From Eubacteriales bacterium (lineage in GTDB: Bacteria > Bacillota > Clostridia > Oscillospirales > Oscillospiraceae): DNA of 50,890 nt. The stretch covers positions 1 through 50,890 of the forward strand of contig JAUNSH010000015.1 in NCBI GenBank assembly GCA_030539285.1, in the 5' to 3' direction. The position numbers were made by a program, and so were the translations under genes. Positions 2,369-14,149 of the stretch are shown here, in pieces; the stretch's first letter is position 1, and each line of letters begins with the position of its first letter. The notes under the pieces are model-generated. The model was not told where the DNA came from. It saw only the letters and a list, made by a program, of their open reading frames with translations, and did not search any database.

Positions 2369-4751
2369 TGGTGTTTTCCTCCTTTTGATCTGCTGGACGG
2401 GTGGTCATGAGGCGGTAAAGCTCCGTATCCTTGGGGAAGTTATCCACGAAGGGCACAATGGTATCGCCGTAGAACAACAGTCCCTCCCCCGAATTGGAAT
2501 GGGTCACATAGGAAAGCTGGTGGGGAGAAATGCCGAGCTGCTGGGCGAGAATCTTCCGGTCGCCAGCGGCCTGATTGAGCATATAGATAAAATCCGAATT
2601 TTCAAAGATATTCTCAACCTCGCGGCTGGCAAGCAAGTCCTTGACATTCTGGGTAATGCCGGTGGGGATTCCGCCCCATTTACGGAACCGCTTCCAGATT
2701 TCCACGGAATAGGCGGCGGTCTGTTCCTCCTTCAGCAGCAGGTGGAACTCGTCAATGTAGTACCGGGTGGCTTTGCTGGCTTCCCGGTTGATGGTGACGC
2801 GGTTCCAGACCTGATCCTGAACAATCAGCATACCGATCTTCTTGAGCTGCTTACCCAGCTCCTTGATGTCATAGCACACCACCCGGTTGCTCACATCCAC
2901 ATCGGTCTGGTGGTTGAACACATTCAGAGAACCGGTGACATAGATTTCCAGAGCCGTGGCAACAAACTGGGCTTCCTTTTCCTCCTGCTTACGCAGGCAA
3001 TCATAGAGATCGCCGAGGATGGGCATATTCTCCGGCTTGGGGTCGTTGAGGTAGTCCTGATACACCATCCGCACACAGCGGTCAATGATGGTTTTCTCCA
3101 CCGGCTTCAGGCCGTCCTTGCCGCCCACAATCAGCTCACACAGAGACAAAATAAAGTCCGATTTCAGCGAAAGCGGGTTTTCCTCGTCGCTGTAATTGAG
3201 GTTGATGTCCATGGGGTTGATGTGGTGCTTGGAGGTGGGCGAAATCTTGATGACCTGTCCCTCCAGACGCTGCACCAGGGGAAAGTATTCGCCTTCCGGG
3301 TCGCAAATCATAATGTCATCGTCGGTGGCGAGGAACACATTGGAGATTTCCCGTTTGGCGGAGAAGGACTTGCCGGAACCGGGGGTGCCGAGAATCAGAC
3401 CGTTGGGATTTTTCAGCAGCTTCCGATCCACCATGATGATGTTGTTACTTAGGGCGTTGATACCGTAGTACAGCGCCTCCGGGCTGTCCTGGAACAGTTC
3501 CTGGGTGGTAAAGGGAACGAAAATCGCCACGCCGGAGGAGGTCAGTCCCCGCTGAATCTCAATCTGGTTTAGGCCCAGGGGCAGGCTGCTGACCATACCT
3601 TCCTCCTGCTGATAGTCCAGCGCCGTAATGCTGCAATTATATTTCTGGGCTATGGAATTGGTCTGAAACACATTGTTGTCCAGCTGCCGCTTGGTATCGG
3701 CGGTGTTGAGGATCAGGAAAGTGACCAGAAACATACGCTGGTTCCGGCTCTGAAGGTCAGACAGCAGCTTTTTCGCTTCGGCCCCGTAGGTGGCAAGGTC
3801 GGAGGGAATGATATCCATGTCATATCCGGCACGGACAGCCTTTTTCTGTTCCTCAATCTTACTCTTATCCAGATCGGTGATGGTGCGCTTGATGGTTTTG
3901 ATGGCGCTGACCTGATCCACGGACTGCACATGGATATTCACCACAATGTTGCTTTCAATATCCAGAAAGTCCTTGAGAATCCGGTCACTCAGCTCCGGGG
4001 CCAGAATCTGCAGGAAGCTGACAGATGCAAACTTCCTGCCCATGCGGAAATCCTTCGCACGGCTGAACAGGAAGGAGCTGGGGGCAATGTAATCCTTGGT
4101 GGACAGCCCGGAGCGGGGCAGATCTTCCCAGCGGAACACAAAAGGCTCCGGTGTGTCCATGCGGAGAATGTCATGGAGAACCCGGAGCCGTTCCTGTCCG
4201 TTCAGCACCTCGGCGCTGACGCCCAGCCGTTTGAAGTTGTTGAGGATGTCCGTTTCAATGCGTTCCAGCCGGGGCTTTGCAGAGCGGATGTTGTCGGCAT
4301 CGATGCCGAAGGTGAGATACTTGGTTTTTACAATGCCGTTGTTGCCCTTTGCCTGCTGCTCCTGGATGATTTTGGACAGCTCCCGCTGGATGCTCTCAAA
4401 CTGGTCAGAGCGCAGCGGAATTGCCCGGGCAAAGGATTCCCGGAGCGCGGTCAGATTCACGAAGGAAAACTGGAACTTGATGGAGCTGTCAAAGTAATTG
4501 AGGAAATCACACCAGCCGTCGAAAATGGCCTGCTTGTCCTCGTTGTCCGAGAGCTGGTAGTTGATGTCCCGGAACTGGATGGTTTTGGTAAAGTGGGTGG
4601 GCGTGACCTGACAGATTCCGTCTACACGGATTTGCAGGTAGGGAATGCTGTCCTGGGCGGACATTTCCTTCTTATCTGTCCGCTTTGCCCTTGAGATAGC
4701 GGCCTGTACTGCTTTCCTTTCGGCGCGGGACAGCTTTCTTTGGGTGGACAA
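2355..4751 (-). CDS. virB4: VirB4-type conjugative ATPase
   Basis: This is the main ATPase that energises assembly of the type IV secretion system of the ICE, acting at the cytoplasmic face of the membrane. In the 798-residue protein the N-terminal half (about 30-430) is the VirB4/TraE family domain. The C-terminal half is a RecA-like domain with Walker A GTPGSGKS (455-462), a DPEGEY segment soon after it, and Walker B YYIDEFHLL (Asp667, Glu668). The start is TTG at 4751, nine bases after a perfect AAGGAGG. This gives an 80-bp overlap with prgI. An ATG at 4664 just after the prgI stop is the alternative but has poor spacing. The protein is full length and intact. Confidence 0.93.
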   Translation of the reverse strand: MSTQRKLSRAERKAVQAAISRAKRTDKKEMSAQDSIPYLQIRVDGICQVTPTHFTKTIQFRDINYQLSDNEDKQAIFDGWCDFLNYFDSSIKFQFSFVNLTALRESFARAIPLRSDQFESIQRELSKIIQEQQAKGNNGIVKTKYLTFGIDADNIRSAKPRLERIETDILNNFKRLGVSAEVLNGQERLRVLHDILRMDTPEPFVFRWEDLPRSGLSTKDYIAPSSFLFSRAKDFRMGRKFASVSFLQILAPELSDRILKDFLDIESNIVVNIHVQSVDQVSAIKTIKRTITDLDKSKIEEQKKAVRAGYDMDIIPSDLATYGAEAKKLLSDLQSRNQRMFLVTFLILNTADTKRQLDNNVFQTNSIAQKYNCSITALDYQQEEGMVSSLPLGLNQIEIQRGLTSSGVAIFVPFTTQELFQDSPEALYYGINALSNNIIMVDRKLLKNPNGLILGTPGSGKSFSAKREISNVFLATDDDIMICDPEGEYFPLVQRLEGQVIKISPTSKHHINPMDINLNYSDEENPLSLKSDFILSLCELIVGGKDGLKPVEKTIIDRCVRMVYQDYLNDPKPENMPILGDLYDCLRKQEEKEAQFVATALEIYVTGSLNVFNHQTDVDVSNRVVCYDIKELGKQLKKIGMLIVQDQVWNRVTINREASKATRYYIDEFHLLLKEEQTAAYSVEIWKRFRKWGGIPTGITQNVKDLLASREVENIFENSDFIYMLNQAAGDRKILAQQLGISPHQLSYVTHSNSGEGLLFYGDTIVPFVDNFPKDTELYRLMTTRPADQKEENTNDGE

Positions 4752-7714: not shown

Positions 7715-9820
7715 TCAGACGGAGCGCTTCTTGCGGCTTACCAGGACGATGACAGAGGCTGCACCAGCCATCAGCAGGATGCCGATGACGGTAAACATCA
7801 TGGTGCCATTGTCACCGGTCTTGGGCAGGTCAAAGCCACGGGTGTTCACCACGGTCAGGGGCGCTTCGGCATTCCGGCTACCGTTGTCCTCCACCATGTT
7901 GACCTTCTTGCCATCCACGGCAGCGGAAGCGGTCAGCAGCTTATGCTCCAGATGCGCCTGGGGCATATTGTGCAGGTCGCCTGTGTCCTTGATGATGCTG
8001 GCATACCGGGGATCGTTCTGGATCAGGCCCAGCACATCGGAATCGTAGAAGTCGCACAGGTCAGTGGTTTCGGTCTGGGAAATGACCACATCGATGCCCT
8101 GCTTCAGCATCACATAGCCGCTGTCAGTGCGAACCTCGGTCATGGTATAGGTATCGTCCTCCAGACCCTTGACGATGATTTTGCCCTTGGAATCAGCAGC
8201 CTTGACGGGCACAAAGTGGGTGGCGTCGGCTTCCGCAGCCACATGGTCAACCACATAGTAAACGCCCTCGTCCTCGTTCAGCTCGGCTTTCACAAAGAAA
8301 TTGTCGGTTTTGTTCTGGATCAGGAACTCTACCTTGGAGAAATCACCGTTGCCGTCGCTGAACAGCTTGGTCAGGTCAATGCCGTAGGTAAACACATGGC
8401 AATCGTCAACCAGGGTATCATAGTAGTCCTGAGAAGAACGCTTCCAGATCAGAACCACATCGTTGGGGTTTCCGGTGTCGCCGTAAACAACGGAGCCGTC
8501 GCTGTTCATGGTCGCCTGATAGGCGATTCTCACAGTGCAGTCGGAGAAGCCGGAGTTGACCATGGAAGCGTCGGTATAGACTGCCTTGGAGGTGTTGATC
8601 TCACTCAGACCGGCAGCGGACATCTCAATGGTCATAACGGATTCTCCGGCAGAGGTGGTATTATAGGAAACGGTGAACTTGCCGTCAGCTTCCGTCCACT
8701 TGGCAACGGAATCGGTGCAGGCGGCATCGGTGAAGAACTCCAGTACCACATCGCCCTTGTTGTAGGTCAGGCCCTTGGACAGAGTATCCACGAAGGTGTA
8801 GCAGGACAGGTAGGTGGATTCGGAGGTGATGGAGGGCAGGGTGGAAATGATCTGGTAGTCGATGACATCACCATCGGAAGCGGTGCCGGTGTGGGCGTAA
8901 CCGTCTGTGATATCAGCAGCGGAGCCGCCGTTCTTACCAGTGTCAGTCACCTGCTCCCGCAGGGTCTTTTCCAGAGAGGGAATGCCGGTCAGGTTCTTGG
9001 GGTACAGGGTAATGTCATAAATCCAGCGGGTGCCGCCGTCAGTGGCGTTGCTGCCGTCAACGGAGGTCATGGGGACGGATACCAGGAAGGGATCGGTGGT
9101 GGACACAACCATTTCGGGAACCTTGGTTTCCACAACCAGGTACAGGCCCAGAGCCAGATCGGCAGCCTGGGTCTTGCCGTAGGAATCGGTCAGGGGCATG
9201 GCAGTGCCGCCGCCCTCAGCGCTGTAGGCTTCCAGAGCGTTCTTGACTACGGTGGAGTTGGCTTCCAGGCGAGCGGCCAGGGCGTCAATCAGCACATCGG
9301 ACTGGTAGAAATACTTGGAGGAATCCAACTGGTCAGCGTTGGTATAGCGATTCAGGCCATTTTCCAGCCCCAGGGCCTTCAGGAAGTCCGCACCCTTGGT
9401 CTTATCGATGGCGTACAGCACTTCCACATGGCTGTCGGCGCGGTTATCCGCCTCGGACTCGGAGAACTGGACGACATCCGCAACCTTGACATAGGTGAAC
9501 TCCACGCCCTTGATGGCGTAACCGTAGGACACTTCACCGTTGCCCAGGTCAGACTGGGTATCGGTGTCTCCGGCCCGGACTGCGCCGCCCAGAACATCGT
9601 TCACGCCGGTCTGGTCAAACACACCGGTGGAAACATAGGAGGAATCCCAAACGCCGTCCTTTTCCGCGTTGGTCAGGTCATACTTGTAGATGGTCAGGGA
9701 GCCGGTCTTGGATTCGTCGATGGTGGCGTCGCCCACTTCGGCGGCAGAAGCGGCAACGGGGAAGCACAGCAGCATGGCCAGTGCCAGAAGGAGGGAAAGA
9801 ATTTTGGTAAAGTTTTTCAT
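7715..9820 (-). CDS. LPXTG-anchored pilin backbone (isopeptide-forming fimbrial protein)
   Basis: This 701-residue protein is the major pilus subunit, exported and then polymerised by class C sortase. A signal peptide (residues 1 to about 27, cleaving near ASAAE) opens the protein. A pilin motif WIYDITLYPKN at 266-276 supplies Lys275 as the probable nucleophile for chain growth. An E-box-like YTMTEVRTDSGY lies in the last Ig-like domain. The sorting signal LPKTG (665-669) is followed by a hydrophobic stretch and SRKKRSV. The middle is built of Cna-B/SpaH-type domains that normally carry internal Lys-Asn isopeptide bonds. ATG at 9820 follows AAAGGA. It is the likely substrate of the two sortases immediately downstream. 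Confidence 0.92.
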   Translation of the reverse strand: MKNFTKILSLLLALAMLLCFPVAASAAEVGDATIDESKTGSLTIYKYDLTNAEKDGVWDSSYVSTGVFDQTGVNDVLGGAVRAGDTDTQSDLGNGEVSYGYAIKGVEFTYVKVADVVQFSESEADNRADSHVEVLYAIDKTKGADFLKALGLENGLNRYTNADQLDSSKYFYQSDVLIDALAARLEANSTVVKNALEAYSAEGGGTAMPLTDSYGKTQAADLALGLYLVVETKVPEMVVSTTDPFLVSVPMTSVDGSNATDGGTRWIYDITLYPKNLTGIPSLEKTLREQVTDTGKNGGSAADITDGYAHTGTASDGDVIDYQIISTLPSITSESTYLSCYTFVDTLSKGLTYNKGDVVLEFFTDAACTDSVAKWTEADGKFTVSYNTTSAGESVMTIEMSAAGLSEINTSKAVYTDASMVNSGFSDCTVRIAYQATMNSDGSVVYGDTGNPNDVVLIWKRSSQDYYDTLVDDCHVFTYGIDLTKLFSDGNGDFSKVEFLIQNKTDNFFVKAELNEDEGVYYVVDHVAAEADATHFVPVKAADSKGKIIVKGLEDDTYTMTEVRTDSGYVMLKQGIDVVISQTETTDLCDFYDSDVLGLIQNDPRYASIIKDTGDLHNMPQAHLEHKLLTASAAVDGKKVNMVEDNGSRNAEAPLTVVNTRGFDLPKTGDNGTMMFTVIGILLMAGAASVIVLVSRKKRSV

Positions 9821-9907: not shown

Positions 9908-9955
9908 ATGAAAAAAGGTTGAGATACGAATTTACCTCCTGTTCTAAAAAAATGG

Positions 9956-9984
9956 TTGCATTTCTGCGGAGAATTGCATATAAT
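9956..9984 (+). promoter_or_regulatory. Sigma70 promoter of the type III toxin-antitoxin locus
   Basis: TTGCAT (9956-9961) and a perfect TATAAT (9979-9984) are separated by exactly 17 bp. Transcription would start near 9990, just ahead of a small GAACC-GAGA-GGTTC hairpin (9991-10004) that caps the antitoxin repeat RNA. The promoter is on the plus strand, opposite to the surrounding ICE genes. Confidence 0.82.
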
Positions 9985-10006
9985 AATGGTGAACCGAGAG
10001 GTTCTT

Positions 10007-10089
10007 AGCGGGTGTTTCGCCACCCAAACATAAGTGCGAAGCGTTACAGCAGGTGTTCCGCCACCTATATCCCAAGTGCGGGGCGTTAA
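10007..10089 (+). repeat. Two-unit tandem repeat of the antitoxin RNA
   Basis: Unit 1 is 10007-10047 and unit 2 is 10048-10089. The first 20 bases align with only two changes and the last 14 with two. A variable A/T-rich linker with a one-base length change sits between them. The stem GGGTG/CACCC of unit 1 becomes AGGTG/CACCT in unit 2, so pairing is kept. Confidence 0.88.
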
Positions 10090-10097
10090 CGATACGG

Positions 10098-10122
10098 GGG
10101 GATGCAAATCCCCTCGTTTTTT
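10098..10122 (+). terminator. Intrinsic terminator between antitoxin repeats and toxin gene
   Basis: GGGGAT (10098-10103), loop GCAA, ATCCCC (10108-10113), then a run of six T (10117-10122). In type III systems this terminator lets most transcripts stop after the antitoxin and only a minority read into the toxin, keeping RNA antitoxin in excess. Confidence 0.88.
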
Positions 10123-10140
10123 GTGAGAGGGACTATAGAA

Positions 10141-10710
10141 ATGAACATCCGATTTGAAAATCTGGGTCTATACAATATTGATACCGATTATTTGCGGTAT
10201 CTCAATGGTATCGAGCCGGAAGTACAGTTCACGCAGGAAAAGGACTATGAGCAAAAGCCCTTCCTCGGTATTCTCGTTACCATTGATACATATTCCTATT
10301 TCATCCCTCTGACCTCTGGGAAACCGAAACACGCCAAGTGGAAAAATGTGGGGCCTGCCCATTACCTGATTTACGAACAGGTAAAAAAGACGGAGCTTCG
10401 TAAGCGGGATATTTTCAAATCCATCTCAGAGACGGACGCATTGAAAATCTTTGCTGCACTTGACCTGAAGAAGATGATTCCTGTCCGGGAATCGCTATAC
10501 ACATGGATTGATTTTTCTGCTCTGCCTGACAGAAAGTACGCAGACCTGTTAGAAAAGGAATACCGCTTCTGCCAGAAGATACAAGATGGCATTTTGGCTA
10601 AAGTAACACAAATCTACCGGGAGCAGAAAGAAACTGGAAAAGTCCATCCCATGTACTGTGATTTCGCAAAATTGGAAACTGCCTGTGATGAATACACGAC
10701 TGAAGAATAA
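10141..10710 (+). CDS. Type III toxin, ToxN/AbiQ-like endoribonuclease
   Basis: A 189-residue protein of the ToxN/AbiQ family, an RNase that cuts cellular and phage RNA and processes its own repeat antitoxin. Family marks visible are an N-terminal LYNIDTDYLRYLNG, then KPFLGILVTI with Lys39, and the active-site block PLTSGKPKHAKW with Thr58-Ser59 and Lys61. Further on are the C-terminal KMIPVRESLYTWID and a long helix YADLLEKEYRFCQKI. These match the order K..F.GI, PLTS.K, MIPV, Y..LL..QYRF known for the family. ATG at 10141 follows GAGAGG; the upstream ATG at 10102 lies inside the terminator and is rejected. The two ~41-nt repeats resemble the CptIN subgroup, but that is from memory. Likely roles are element maintenance and phage abortive infection. 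Confidence 0.88.
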   Translation: MNIRFENLGLYNIDTDYLRYLNGIEPEVQFTQEKDYEQKPFLGILVTIDTYSYFIPLTSGKPKHAKWKNVGPAHYLIYEQVKKTELRKRDIFKSISETDALKIFAALDLKKMIPVRESLYTWIDFSALPDRKYADLLEKEYRFCQKIQDGILAKVTQIYREQKETGKVHPMYCDFAKLETACDEYTTEE

Positions 10711-10729
10711 TCCGCAATCCTCTGTAATC

Positions 10730-10758
10730 GCCGGAAGCCGATGCGTTTCCGGCTTTTT
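10730..10758. terminator. Terminator between toxin gene and convergent adhesin gene
   Basis: GCCGGAA and TTCCGGC form a 7-bp stem with a loop of about ten bases, followed on the plus strand by a T-rich run (CTTTTTCTTTT). It ends the toxin transcript 20 bp after its stop codon. On the minus strand it lies just past the adhesin stop at 10775 but lacks a clear T run there. Confidence 0.75.
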
Positions 10759-10774
10759 CTTTTGGTACAGAAAG

Positions 10775-13700
10775 TTATTTCCCTTTTTTCCGAAATAGAA
10801 TCATCACCAGACAGCCGATGGCAGCGATCATGCTGAGAACTCTGAGAATCAGCCCCGTGCTGGCTCCGGTGTCGGGCATGGTGAAGATACGGGCGTTAAT
10901 CACACGCACTGCGATCTCCAAGTCATCAACAGGAAGCTCTCCTTCAAAAGCAGTGTTGGTGAGCAGCTTGAAGCCGTCCGGTGCCTTGGTTTCCGTCAGG
11001 CGGTACTGTAAGCCGGGATAGAGGCTGCCCCATTCCAGAATACCGTCCGCTCCAGTGGTCAGGCACCCTTCCAAAACATCGGGATTGGAGCAGCTGCCCC
11101 GCACCACAACTTCGGAATCAGAAAAGGTTACGGGATACCACAGAGAACCCTCCGCACTCCATTCCAGCAGGAAAGTAGCCCCTTCCAGGGGGCTTCCGGT
11201 GGTGTCTACCTTCTCTACGGTGATCTTACCAGGACGCAGGGTGTTGGTGAAGAAAACCCCTGCGGTCTTGCCCTGGGCAACTGTAATTCTCTGGGGATTC
11301 TCACTTTTGCAGTAGAACAGGCTGTCCGCTGGGAACAGTTCTTCGATGGTGTACTCACCGGGAAGAATGTTTTCCGTCAGGATGGTGCCGTCTGCCTGGG
11401 AGGTAAAGGGAGAACCATTAATTTCTGTCCCGTTGGCATCCGTGATCTTGAACTGCCAGCCTTCTACGCTGCCGTCGCCCTCTACGGTTTTGGTGATTTT
11501 CAGCCTGCCGTACTGGATATTGGTGAAGGAAATGGAAACATCCTCATGGGGCTTGATCTCAAATTCCTGAACGGTTTCATCCACCATCCAGTATTCATCC
11601 TCGAAGCGTCCATACTCGTCTCCGGTTTCCTTGGCCCAGTAGGTGCCGGGGTCAAGATAGTACCCAGCCTTCCCATCCTCGTTGGTGATAAGCGTGCCGA
11701 TCTCCTGGGTGCAGGCTTCATCCGCATAGACTGTAATGTGCCAGCCCTCAACGGATTCTCCAGTGTTGGTTTTCTTGTAGAACCAGCCAAGGCCCTGTTC
11801 CTTGTTCAGCCAGGTGTCCACAGAGGTTTTTCCTGCGATGACGGTTACATCATGGAAGCCCAGTTCCGTACACCAGTAATTATCCTCTGTAGGCAGCTCA
11901 ACAATAAGATAGCGTCCCGGAGCCAGTTTTCCGGTGCAGGCATAGCCGTTTTCGTCTGTGGTGTAGTCACCCACAACATTGCCGTCGGAGTCCTTTACCC
12001 GGAATGTCCAGCCTTCCAGATGATTGCCCGTATTGGTGGTTTTCTGGAACTCGATACGTCCATACTGCGTATTGGTATAGGACACTTCCGCCTGTGAACC
12101 GGCTGTGACCGTTACCTGCTTTTCTACGGTGGCATCGTACTCCCAATAGGTGTCATCCCGGTCATGAACTTCCCGCACATAGTAATTTCCAGGCAGCAGC
12201 TTCCCCGAACAGGCGCAGCCGTCCGCTCCGGTTTTGACGGTAGAAAGGATGTTTTTGTCGGCATCCAGAATCTGGAAGCTCCATCCCTCCGCGGAACCGT
12301 TCACTGCGTTCTTTTGAATGCGCAGATCGCCGTAATGGGTATTGGAGAACGTTACAGTTGCCGTGGCATTGGCTGTGACTGTTACCATTTCCACAGAGGA
12401 ATCGCAGACCCAGTAAGGATCACTGATGTCTGCTTCCTTTGCGTAATAAGTTCCGATGGTCAATCCTGTAACCGTCACGCTGCCGTCTACCCCAGTGATA
12501 AAGGGAGAGCCGGTGACAGCACTGGTGCAGGCAGCATCATAGTAAAGCCCAATCTGCCAACCACTCAGGTTCTGACCTGTGTTTGTGGTCTTGACCAGCT
12601 TCACGCTGCCGGTGTTCAGCTTGTTTGTGAAGCTGACCGTTGCTGTGGCACCTGCGGTCACAGTTACCGACTGCGGGTTGGTGCTGGCACAGTAGTACAG
12701 GGCATTGATGGCGCTGTCCGTATGTCCCAGCTCCTTAACGTAGTAAGTGCCTGCAGACAGTCCGGTTACGGAAATCTTTCCGCTGCTGTCCGTGGTATGC
12801 GGCCCGGATACCAGGCTGGTGCAAGCGGAATTGGAGTAAATCCCAAATCTCCAGCCTGACAGATTTTTGCCGTCCTCCGTGGTTTTCGTCAGACTGATGG
12901 CTCCCAGCGCAGGCGCTTTCAGCTTAAAATAGGCATTGAGATTGCCGCTGTAAGCGCTGTACAGGTTGATACAGGTCTGATAGGTTGAACCGGACATATA
13001 CCAAATATTGTAGGTAGAATTGGCAGCGGAGGGAGCATACCGGGTTGCCGTAAAGATCGTGGACTCCGAAATGGTTCCGGTTTGGGTGATCGTCAGTGTG
13101 TTTCCGCTCTTGCTGAAGCTGGCCCCGCTTCCATTGGAGAAGCTGAAATTGGACAGCACGCCGTTGGAATCCGTTACAGAGGTGGACGTACCGTTCAGAG
13201 TGATCGTCGGCGCACTGCTGCTGGATTTGCTGGTGAAACTGGGGATCTTCATTGCCGACTGAATATAGGAAACCAGCGTATTGTAGTTCGGGGCGAAGTT
13301 GGAAACACTGTCAACACCTGCGTTGTAGAATACGTCACCGCTGGTGCCGCACTCATTTGCAGAGTTGAGCGTAAAGGTATTGGGATCTCGCAGCCCACAG
13401 ACAATTTCATAAATCAGGAACTGGGTTGCCACACGAAGCGGAACGTTGGGATTGTTGGCTTTGGCGGTGGTGGTCACGCTGATGGAGTGATCCCACATCT
13501 GGTTGCTGTACAGCAGGATCAGGCCAATAGCTTCCCGTCTCGCAGCAGGCAGCGCATACCAGACATTGGAGCCTTGGGTGCTGCCACTGCCATCCAGAGT
13601 CACACCCCGGTCAACTGAGTTGCCGGAGGTGCTGGCTGCATAGGTGCGCCAAGGCTCAATGCAATAGATGGGGTCATCCGCATAGGCAACGCCGCCGTAC

Positions 13701-14149
13701 CGGGCAAAATGCCAGCCCAGGTTCTTGATGTACGCCGTCCGGGTCGTATCAGTGCCGTTGGGTTTGTAGGTACAGGACACCTGGTAGTTTAATACCGTGG
13801 TGTAATTGCCATTGTCCGCATAATCGAACAGCATGATGCTGTTCTGGGTGCTGGCAATGCTCATAACGGCGTAATCATCGGAAGCGAATGCCATGATTTT
13901 CGACTCGTCTCCCAAGTCTTCCTCTTCCAAGCCTTCGACGGCTTCTGTCTCAGGCTCCGTTGACGGGGACGTTGTTTCCTCTGCCTGGGTTTCTTCGTCA
14001 GGAGTGGTTGTTTCCCCGGCTTGCGTCGATTCCGGTTCCGTATTGACTCCCGGTGTATCCGCTTCTGCGGCTGACACACCGGGAACTAAACCAAAGCACA
14101 GAATCAACACCAACAGGAGGGAAATCATTCTCCGTAAGCGTTTCATCAT
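10775..14149 (-). CDS. Pilus-tip adhesin with thioester domain, Cna-B repeats and MPDTG anchor
   Basis: This large 1,124-residue surface protein is the probable tip adhesin of the ICE-borne pilus. A signal peptide (residues 1 to about 28) is followed by a Thr/Glu-rich spacer. The thioester (TQXA) domain has Cys163 in PIYCIEPW and Gln243 in ATQFLIYEI, the pair expected to form an internal thioester that can react covalently with host surfaces. Seven Cna-B/SpaA-like repeats of about 80-100 residues follow, each with a Lys-rich first strand (e.g. SVKLVKTTNTGQNLSGW) and a closing FTN/YTN strand. The wall-sorting signal is MPDTG, not LPXTG, then a membrane segment and FRKKGK. It is separated from the pilin by the toxin-antitoxin locus. 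Confidence 0.92.
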   Translation of the reverse strand: MMKRLRRMISLLLVLILCFGLVPGVSAAEADTPGVNTEPESTQAGETTTPDEETQAEETTSPSTEPETEAVEGLEEEDLGDESKIMAFASDDYAVMSIASTQNSIMLFDYADNGNYTTVLNYQVSCTYKPNGTDTTRTAYIKNLGWHFARYGGVAYADDPIYCIEPWRTYAASTSGNSVDRGVTLDGSGSTQGSNVWYALPAARREAIGLILLYSNQMWDHSISVTTTAKANNPNVPLRVATQFLIYEIVCGLRDPNTFTLNSANECGTSGDVFYNAGVDSVSNFAPNYNTLVSYIQSAMKIPSFTSKSSSSAPTITLNGTSTSVTDSNGVLSNFSFSNGSGASFSKSGNTLTITQTGTISESTIFTATRYAPSAANSTYNIWYMSGSTYQTCINLYSAYSGNLNAYFKLKAPALGAISLTKTTEDGKNLSGWRFGIYSNSACTSLVSGPHTTDSSGKISVTGLSAGTYYVKELGHTDSAINALYYCASTNPQSVTVTAGATATVSFTNKLNTGSVKLVKTTNTGQNLSGWQIGLYYDAACTSAVTGSPFITGVDGSVTVTGLTIGTYYAKEADISDPYWVCDSSVEMVTVTANATATVTFSNTHYGDLRIQKNAVNGSAEGWSFQILDADKNILSTVKTGADGCACSGKLLPGNYYVREVHDRDDTYWEYDATVEKQVTVTAGSQAEVSYTNTQYGRIEFQKTTNTGNHLEGWTFRVKDSDGNVVGDYTTDENGYACTGKLAPGRYLIVELPTEDNYWCTELGFHDVTVIAGKTSVDTWLNKEQGLGWFYKKTNTGESVEGWHITVYADEACTQEIGTLITNEDGKAGYYLDPGTYWAKETGDEYGRFEDEYWMVDETVQEFEIKPHEDVSISFTNIQYGRLKITKTVEGDGSVEGWQFKITDANGTEINGSPFTSQADGTILTENILPGEYTIEELFPADSLFYCKSENPQRITVAQGKTAGVFFTNTLRPGKITVEKVDTTGSPLEGATFLLEWSAEGSLWYPVTFSDSEVVVRGSCSNPDVLEGCLTTGADGILEWGSLYPGLQYRLTETKAPDGFKLLTNTAFEGELPVDDLEIAVRVINARIFTMPDTGASTGLILRVLSMIAAIGCLVMILFRKKGK

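What the first reader, a model, noticed from the sequence alone, without database searches (positions are those of the whole stretch)
9956..10758. Compact type III toxin-antitoxin locus (RNA antitoxin plus ToxN/AbiQ-like RNase) inside an ICE
Seen directly: a perfect 17-bp-spaced promoter, a capping hairpin, two 41/42-nt tandem repeats, an intrinsic terminator, then a 189-codon gene, all on the strand opposite to the ICE. The protein carries the ToxN-type blocks KPFLGI, PLTSGK and KMIPV. Promoter, repeat, terminator, toxin is the known plan of type III systems. The unusually short array of two units, and its placement within a pilus cluster of a conjugative element, suggest a variant that may act in ICE maintenance or phage defence.
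Basis: partly seen in the sequence, partly recalled or inferred. Interest (0 to 1): 0.9.

Follow-up and report, generated by a model that had tools for sequence, protein, structure and literature searches.

The report
Ordinary RNA-blocked toxin pair in ICE
A gut bacterium's conjugative element carries a known kind of self-poisoning switch, an RNA-cutting toxin held in check by two copies of a small knotted RNA; it is a clear new example of a familiar system.

Summary
The 189-aa protein at window 10141-10710 is a ToxN/AbiQ-family RNase (Pfam PF13958, E 1.3e-49; hits to solved ToxN and AbiQ). Upstream lie a -10 box, a GNRA-capped hairpin, two tandem units and an intrinsic terminator. Each unit fits an H-type pseudoknot: in 22 units from 10 loci 93.5% of pair cells hold and 27 cells carry compensatory changes (0 of 500 shuffles reach either). 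So this is a ToxIN-family type III toxin-antitoxin locus.

Corrections: the -35 (TTGCAT) matches consensus at 3 of 6. Two-unit arrays are not unusual: CptI has two, and by my reading so do 13 fetched ToxN loci. By the sequence tests run, the protein is neither TenpN nor CptN.

The ICE setting holds. A relative ICE with 91-93% identical flanks lacks the module at this point. A different ICE lineage carries other toxIN subtypes, or a Fic gene, between its pilin gene and virB6, so toxIN has entered transfer modules more than once. Some ToxN relatives have single-unit antitoxins. Overall: a new member of a known kind, with modest interest in the ICE cargo slot.

The parts
9956..9984 (+). promoter TTGCAT-17-TATAAT
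   Evidence: same boxes and spacing in L002, L003, L013; not listed by the consensus scan
9991..10004 (+). 5' hairpin GAACC-GAGA-GGTTC (GNRA loop), beginning about where transcription should start (start site inferred)
   Evidence: comparable GNRA hairpins in L002 and L004, none in L033 or L043
10007..10047 (+). antitoxin unit 1: S1 GGGUG/CACCC, S2 UUUCGC/GCGAAG
10048..10090 (+). antitoxin unit 2: S1 AGGUG/CACCU, S2 UUCCGC/GCGGGG (compensated differences from unit 1)
10094..10117 (+). intrinsic terminator between antitoxin and toxin
10141..10710 (+). toxN, 189 aa, ToxN/AbiQ-family endoribonuclease; K39, T58, S59, K61 match the active-site residues named for E. coli ToxN
10730..10753 (+). intrinsic terminator after toxN
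9920..10784 (+). module absent from the relative ICE G403:C14 (L069)
7715..9820 (-). ICE pilin-like surface protein (SpaA, pilin D1, LPXTG anchor)
10775..14149 (-). ICE SpaA-repeat / thioester adhesin

Best explanation
A ToxIN-family type III toxin-antitoxin module carried as cargo by an ICE. One promoter transcribes two pseudoknot RNA units. Most transcripts stop at the terminator, and a minority read through into toxN. ToxN is an RNase that cuts the precursor into units, is captured by them in a closed RNA-protein ring, and is thereby kept inactive. If antitoxin supply falls (ICE loss, or shut-off of transcription by a phage), free ToxN cuts RNA and stops growth. That would stabilise the ICE and could abort phage infection. 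Shown here: homology, active-site residues, pseudoknot covariation, gene order, presence in one ICE and absence from close relatives of it. Inferred from the family: cutting, ring assembly, the read-through ratio, and the biological benefit.
For: PF13958 E 1.3e-49; PADLOC AbiQ 4.1e-29; solved ToxN 7d8o, 4ato, 2xd0 and AbiQ 4glk hit at 7.5e-15 to 0.0029. K39/T58/S59/K61 match Lys33/Thr52/Ser53/Lys55 of E. coli ToxN (alignment; PMC8860590 passages). Pseudoknot pairs hold in 93.5% of cells, 27 cells changed on both sides, 0 of 500 shuffles reach either; slid versions pair 58% at most. Related antitoxin arrays stand next to related toxins. Flanks 91-93% identical to an ICE without the module.
Against: Nothing tests expression, processing, toxicity or phage defence. 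The junction between the units reads UUACAG where most of the aligned relatives read UUAAAG or UAAAG, so the cutting site may differ. In one search two of five measures (pairs with a change on both sides, further pair types) do not exceed shuffles. No Rfam family reaches its gathering score. NCBIfam names it only weakly as TenpIN (14.7 bits against a cut-off of 90).
Confidence: 0.88

Rival explanations
1. A decayed or passenger toxIN: it came in with DNA exchange and gives the ICE nothing.
For: In this genus only 4 of 136 genomes (own included) have a ToxN match; of the other three one is split (G454) and one is weak (G536, 26 bits). Related loci L010, L015, L016 and L043 have interrupted toxin frames, and L047 and L048 lack the start of the toxin.
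Against: The window's toxin frame is complete with active-site residues kept, the S1 and S2 changes between its two units are compensated, and both terminators and the shared promoter boxes are intact.
Confidence: 0.1
2. A CptIN or TenpIN locus rather than ToxIN.
For: A two-unit array with units over 40 nt resembles CptI (45 nt, two repeats). A sub-threshold TenpIN hit.
Against: PF13958 matches residues 9-185 of 189. Solved ToxN and AbiQ are found and no CptN is, up to E 1. The TenpIN score is far below its cut-off.
Confidence: 0.03
3. The repeats are a regulatory element of the toxin mRNA (attenuator) and not a trans-acting antitoxin.
For: The units sit in the leader of the toxin transcript, before a terminator.
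Against: Separate pseudoknot units with covarying stems beside ToxN in several lineages match ToxI, which neutralises by direct binding in studied systems (PMC5086642, passages and sections).
Confidence: 0.03

Closest known systems
ToxIN family (P. atrosepticum, B. thuringiensis, E. coli) and AbiQ/antiQ of L. lactis
   Same: PF13958 toxin with the same active-site residues; tandem pseudoknot RNA, terminator, toxin gene
   Different: units of 41-43 nt against 34-36 nt, and two units against 2.8-5.5 in the three systems named by PMC5086642; a GNRA-capped 5' hairpin before unit 1
CptIN of Eubacterium rectale (PDB 4RMO)
   Same: type III plan, two repeats, unit over 40 nt
   Different: no sequence match of the toxin to CptN; CptI is described with a different pseudoknot from the ToxI kind
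ToxN of Lachnospiraceae MAG MI.11_2 (L002) and of E. faecalis plasmid pGTC3 (L093)
   Same: closest relatives found in genome contigs and in plasmids: L002 54% protein identity and units nearly identical to the window's unit 2; L093 43%
   Different: three units instead of two; none of the window's ICE proteins found next to them

Membership tests
ToxIN (type III TA) | toxin of the ToxN/AbiQ family | tested here: met
   PF13958 168.9 bits against a cut-off of 25; ToxN and AbiQ structures
ToxIN (type III TA) | active-site residues Lys, Thr, Ser, Lys | tested here: met
   K39, T58, S59, K61
ToxIN (type III TA) | tandem RNA repeats upstream of the toxin | tested here: met
ToxIN (type III TA) | each repeat folds as an H-type pseudoknot | tested here: met
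   by covariation only; two in tandem in 0 of 2000 shuffles
ToxIN (type III TA) | Rho-independent terminator between repeats and toxin, one promoter upstream | tested here: met
   the -35 matches only 3 of 6 and the scan does not list the promoter
ToxIN (type III TA) | toxicity neutralised by the RNA; precursor cut by the toxin; heterohexamer | not testable with these tools
   needs bench work; structure prediction switched off
CptIN | CptN-type toxin | tested here: not met
   no CptN chain among PDB matches up to E 1
TenpIN | toxin over the NCBIfam TenpIN cut-off | tested here: not met
   14.7 against 90 bits
ICE of the CD1107/Tn1549 kind (family label recalled) | VirB4, VirB6, VirD4 and mobile-element genes around the locus | tested here: met
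   CD1107-like protein, topoisomerase and ArdC-like domain in the collinear relative
ICE of the CD1107/Tn1549 kind (family label recalled) | relaxase and integrase in the same element | tested here: inconclusive
   the contig begins inside the ICE; the only relaxase over the cut-off lies on another contig of the genome; no integrase was sought

The most novel reading that the evidence does not exclude
The interval between virD4 and virB6 in ICEs of gut Clostridia is a recurrent cargo slot in which different toxins (at least three ToxIN subtypes over two ICE lineages, and a Fic protein) replace one another, so the conjugation module itself carries the addiction or defence gene. ToxIN antitoxins in these lineages range from one to three units, including natural single-unit antitoxins whose 5' end appears to be set by the transcription start rather than by ToxN cutting.
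Probability: 0.4. Interest if true: 0.5.

Novelty: new member of a known kind. Interest (0 to 1): 0.28.

Why it matters
It adds a well-formed ToxIN on an ICE, where a clean empty site shows that it arrived as cargo. Together with the toxIN-occupied and empty copies of a second ICE lineage it gives material to test whether type III systems stabilise ICEs or guard them against phages. Single-unit relatives, if functional, would show that tandem repeats, used as a search criterion for type III systems (PMC5086642, its section 7), are not required.

Tried and rejected
CptIN and TenpIN membership: not met. Rfam: nothing at gathering threshold over the window, and only three sub-threshold unrelated families for 9940-10140. 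RNA fold without pseudoknots: z -1.46, no support on its own. IMG/VR: no stretch matched the peptide patterns. Structure prediction: switched off, so no fold comparison was made. NCBIfam scan of the 21 aligned toxins at E 0.01: no type III toxin family, only 2 weak unrelated ones. Another insert near this place in the window's ICE lineage: the 3-kb extra piece of L072 lies by the 5' part of the pilin gene and holds a 636-aa ORF that I take, from memory and without a scan, for a group II intron reverse transcriptase, not a toxin. The second pseudoknot stem of the 51-54-nt units (L005-L011, L014, L016, L037) could not be settled, because those units hardly vary.

An error of my own, mended: I first took L047 and L048 for single-unit loci, because a script cut their upstream sequence inside the second unit; one search shows two units and a toxin without its start.

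Literature: searches. 'ToxIN' is read by the search as 'toxin', so these are weak for novelty claims, and I make none from them. One search (ToxN with 'integrative and conjugative element') listed four papers, none read. I saw passages or named sections of PMC5086642, PMC8860590, PMC4627078 and PMC12373285, and the rest as listings only.

Full report
WHAT IS THERE. The window at 9956-10758 holds, on the + strand: a -10 box TATAAT 17 bp after TTGCAT; a hairpin GAACC-GAGA-GGTTC; two tandem units (41 nt, then 43 nt as aligned; Tandem Repeats Finder period 41, 2.0 copies, score 99); an intrinsic terminator; a 189-codon ORF starting at 10141; and a second terminator. The genes on both sides are on the - strand. 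The -35 matches consensus at 3 of 6 and is not listed by the promoter scan. The same two boxes with the same spacing stand before the arrays of L002, L003 and L013, and a near form stands before L004.

THE PROTEIN. P0001 matches PF13958 ToxN_toxin at E 1.3e-49 over residues 9-185, PADLOC AbiQ at 4.1e-29, and the solved structures 7d8o, 4ato, 2xd0 (ToxN) and 4glk (AbiQ) at 7.5e-15, 2.2e-14, 2.8e-10 and 0.0029. The NCBIfam TenpIN model gives 14.7 bits against a cut-off of 90. K39, T58, S59 and K61 fall on the active-site residues Lys33, Thr52, Ser53 and Lys55 of E. coli ToxN (alignment; passages of PMC8860590). In the 21-protein alignment S59 is invariant and K61 at least 90% conserved; K39 and T58 are not in either list.

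THE RNA. Both units fit an H-type pseudoknot. Unit 1 has S1 GGGUG/CACCC and S2 UUUCGC/GCGAAG. Unit 2 has AGGUG/CACCU and UUCCGC/GCGGGG, so both stems differ by compensated changes. I aligned 22 units from 10 loci. Left out: both units of L048 and the second unit of L047 (the latter seen only), the three units of L093 (fetched later), and all units of other ToxN subtypes. On 21 distinct rows, 93.5% of 231 cells pair, 27 cells have changes on both sides and the covariation score is 0.434; 0 of 500 shuffles reach any of these three. The two other measures (pairs with a change on both sides, further pair types) do not exceed shuffles (reached in 420 and 373 of 500). Sliding the partner by 1-3 columns drops pairing to 33-58%. 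The outer two pairs of S2 are the weakest (4 and 8 unpaired cells of 21). In shuffles of the region two such pseudoknots appear in 0 of 2000 and at least one in 88 of 2000; the ungapped repeat identity was reached in 6 of 2000. A fold without pseudoknots is unremarkable (z -1.46).

RELATIVES. Genome contigs gave 17 loci with a relative, the nearest 54% identical in alignment (L002). In all 14 that have upstream sequence (L002-L011, L013-L016) I read at least one unit. By my reading, thirteen loci have two units (L005, L006, L023, L029, L033, L036, L037, L039, L041, L042, L044, and L047 and L048, whose toxin lacks its start). Single units stand before complete toxin frames in L007, L008, L009, L011, L014 and L040, and before interrupted frames in L010, L015, L016 and L043. 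These counts are by eye. L007-L010 and L016 are near copies of one lineage, L011 and L014 of another. In L007, L008, L009 and L040 the single unit begins 5-7 nt after the -10 box, in L014 11 nt after; for L011 the scan chose a box 68 nt upstream. So in at least the first four the 5' end of the unit would be about the transcript's own start. Known natural arrays of two (CptI, PMC4627078 passage) and 2.1 repeats (TenpI and CptI, as cited in PMC12373285, passage) mean that the window's two units are not exceptional. A single CptI repeat gives full antitoxicity when tested (PMC4627078 passage), and antiQ with 1.8 repeats works while clones with 0.8 were inviable (PMC5086642 passage). DNA of the antitoxin region aligns with L002, L003, L004 and L013 at 76-93%, while their toxin genes give no match at that setting; of eight loci compared only L005 gives a toxin-gene match, of 37 bases. 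So in those four the RNA has changed less than the toxin DNA.

THE SETTING. Genes around it are VirB4, VirB6, two sortases, an LPXTG pilin-like protein, a SpaA/thioester adhesin, VirD4, DUF3801, DUF6017 and ParB. From about 28 kb on are SMC, a leucyl-tRNA synthetase and others, i.e. chromosome. Window 1-20.6 kb is collinear with G403:C14, mostly at 89-94% and at 70-79% beyond 17 kb, with gaps; G403 further holds a topoisomerase, a CD1107-like protein and an ArdC-like domain. In G403:C14 the flanks meet: window 9919 is joined to 10785 with 19 bp between. G448 and G409 are likewise without the module, at about 79% and 73-80% identity. In this genus 4 of 136 genomes, own included, have any ToxN match. 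The ICE stretch 8800-11800 matches in 35 of 149 relatives, own included, many by short pieces only. The other two ToxN loci of the genus that I fetched (G400, G454) share no DNA with the window's first 28 kb at the setting used.

IS ICE PLACEMENT UNUSUAL? I searched with ten ICE proteins of the window in 45 ToxN neighbourhoods: 29 stretches covering 30 of the 48 places listed, and 16 others. Four of 45 (all within the 29) hold T4SS genes: L107, L108, L111 and L116. Zero of 29 arbitrary control stretches do. The controls are the first up to 16 kb of contig 5 or 8, several of them short, and are not matched for contig type. Many neighbourhoods are cut by contig ends, and only this kind of ICE could be seen. 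In all four, toxIN lies between a VirB2-like pilin gene (TrbC, just over its cut-off) and a virB6-like gene, on the ICE strand. That virB6-like protein matches the window's VirB6 by tblastn at 1e-12 to 1e-15 in three of the four but has no Pfam match at 0.001. The toxins are of two subtypes about 30% identical to each other and 28-32% to the window's. A search of 391 genomes of the class for that protein gave 12 places at 79% identity or more; 4 have ToxN next to it. Of the other 8 I read 6: the pilin-virB6 gap is 63, 71, 71, 81 and 212 bp in five, and 1395 bp with a Fic-family gene in one. Two partial matches (G237, G306) were not read; one search lists no ToxN in those genomes. The query came from a toxIN-bearing ICE, so 4 of 12 is biased upward. 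In the window the module also lies between virD4 and virB6, but beside a sortase-type pilin gene and on the opposite strand.

HOW IT MOST LIKELY WORKS. As in studied ToxIN systems: read-through of the terminator gives little toxin and much RNA; ToxN cuts the precursor and is trapped by the units (review passages and sections; passages). All of this is inferred for the present locus. The 5' hairpin probably protects or defines the 5' end of unit 1; it has GNRA counterparts in L002 and L004, longer hairpins in L003 and L013, a hairpin in L038, and none in L033 or L043. The unit junction UUACAG differs from the UUAAAG or UAAAG of most aligned relatives, so the cutting site needs testing.

VERDICT. 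The locus is a new member of the ToxIN family, carried as cargo on an ICE. The recurrent slot and the single-unit relatives are the parts worth following.

Noticed in passing
window 3375-3379; L098:1109-3907: virB4 of the relative ICE (G403) carries about 135 extra residues between GTPG and SGKS of the Walker A motif, with a weak hit to Intein_splicing (33.1 bits, below its cut-off of 35.8); G448 has an extra piece of the same length there. The window's VirB4 reads GTPGSGKS without it.
   Followed up: partly
L007, L008, L009, L011, L014, L040: ToxN loci with a single antitoxin unit and a complete toxin frame; in L007, L008, L009 and L040 the unit starts 5-7 nt after the -10 box.
   Followed up: partly
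L160:1322-2482: A Fic/DOC-family gene occupies the pilin-virB6 gap that holds toxIN in related ICEs.
   Followed up: partly
L107:2183-4981: A 932-aa SIR2-domain protein lies just before virD4 in an ICE that also carries toxIN.
   Followed up: no
L027, L028, L030, L032, L034: Arrays of three units that differ strongly in sequence from one another yet look like the same pseudoknot; read by eye.
   Followed up: no
L015, L043, L047, L048: Possibly decaying copies: L015 and L043 have one unit and an interrupted toxin frame; L047 and L048 have two units running straight into a toxin that lacks its start.
   Followed up: partly
L072:1055-2965: A 636-aa ORF that looks like a group II intron reverse transcriptase (recalled, not scanned), in a 3-kb piece inserted by the pilin gene of an ICE relative.
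   Followed up: no
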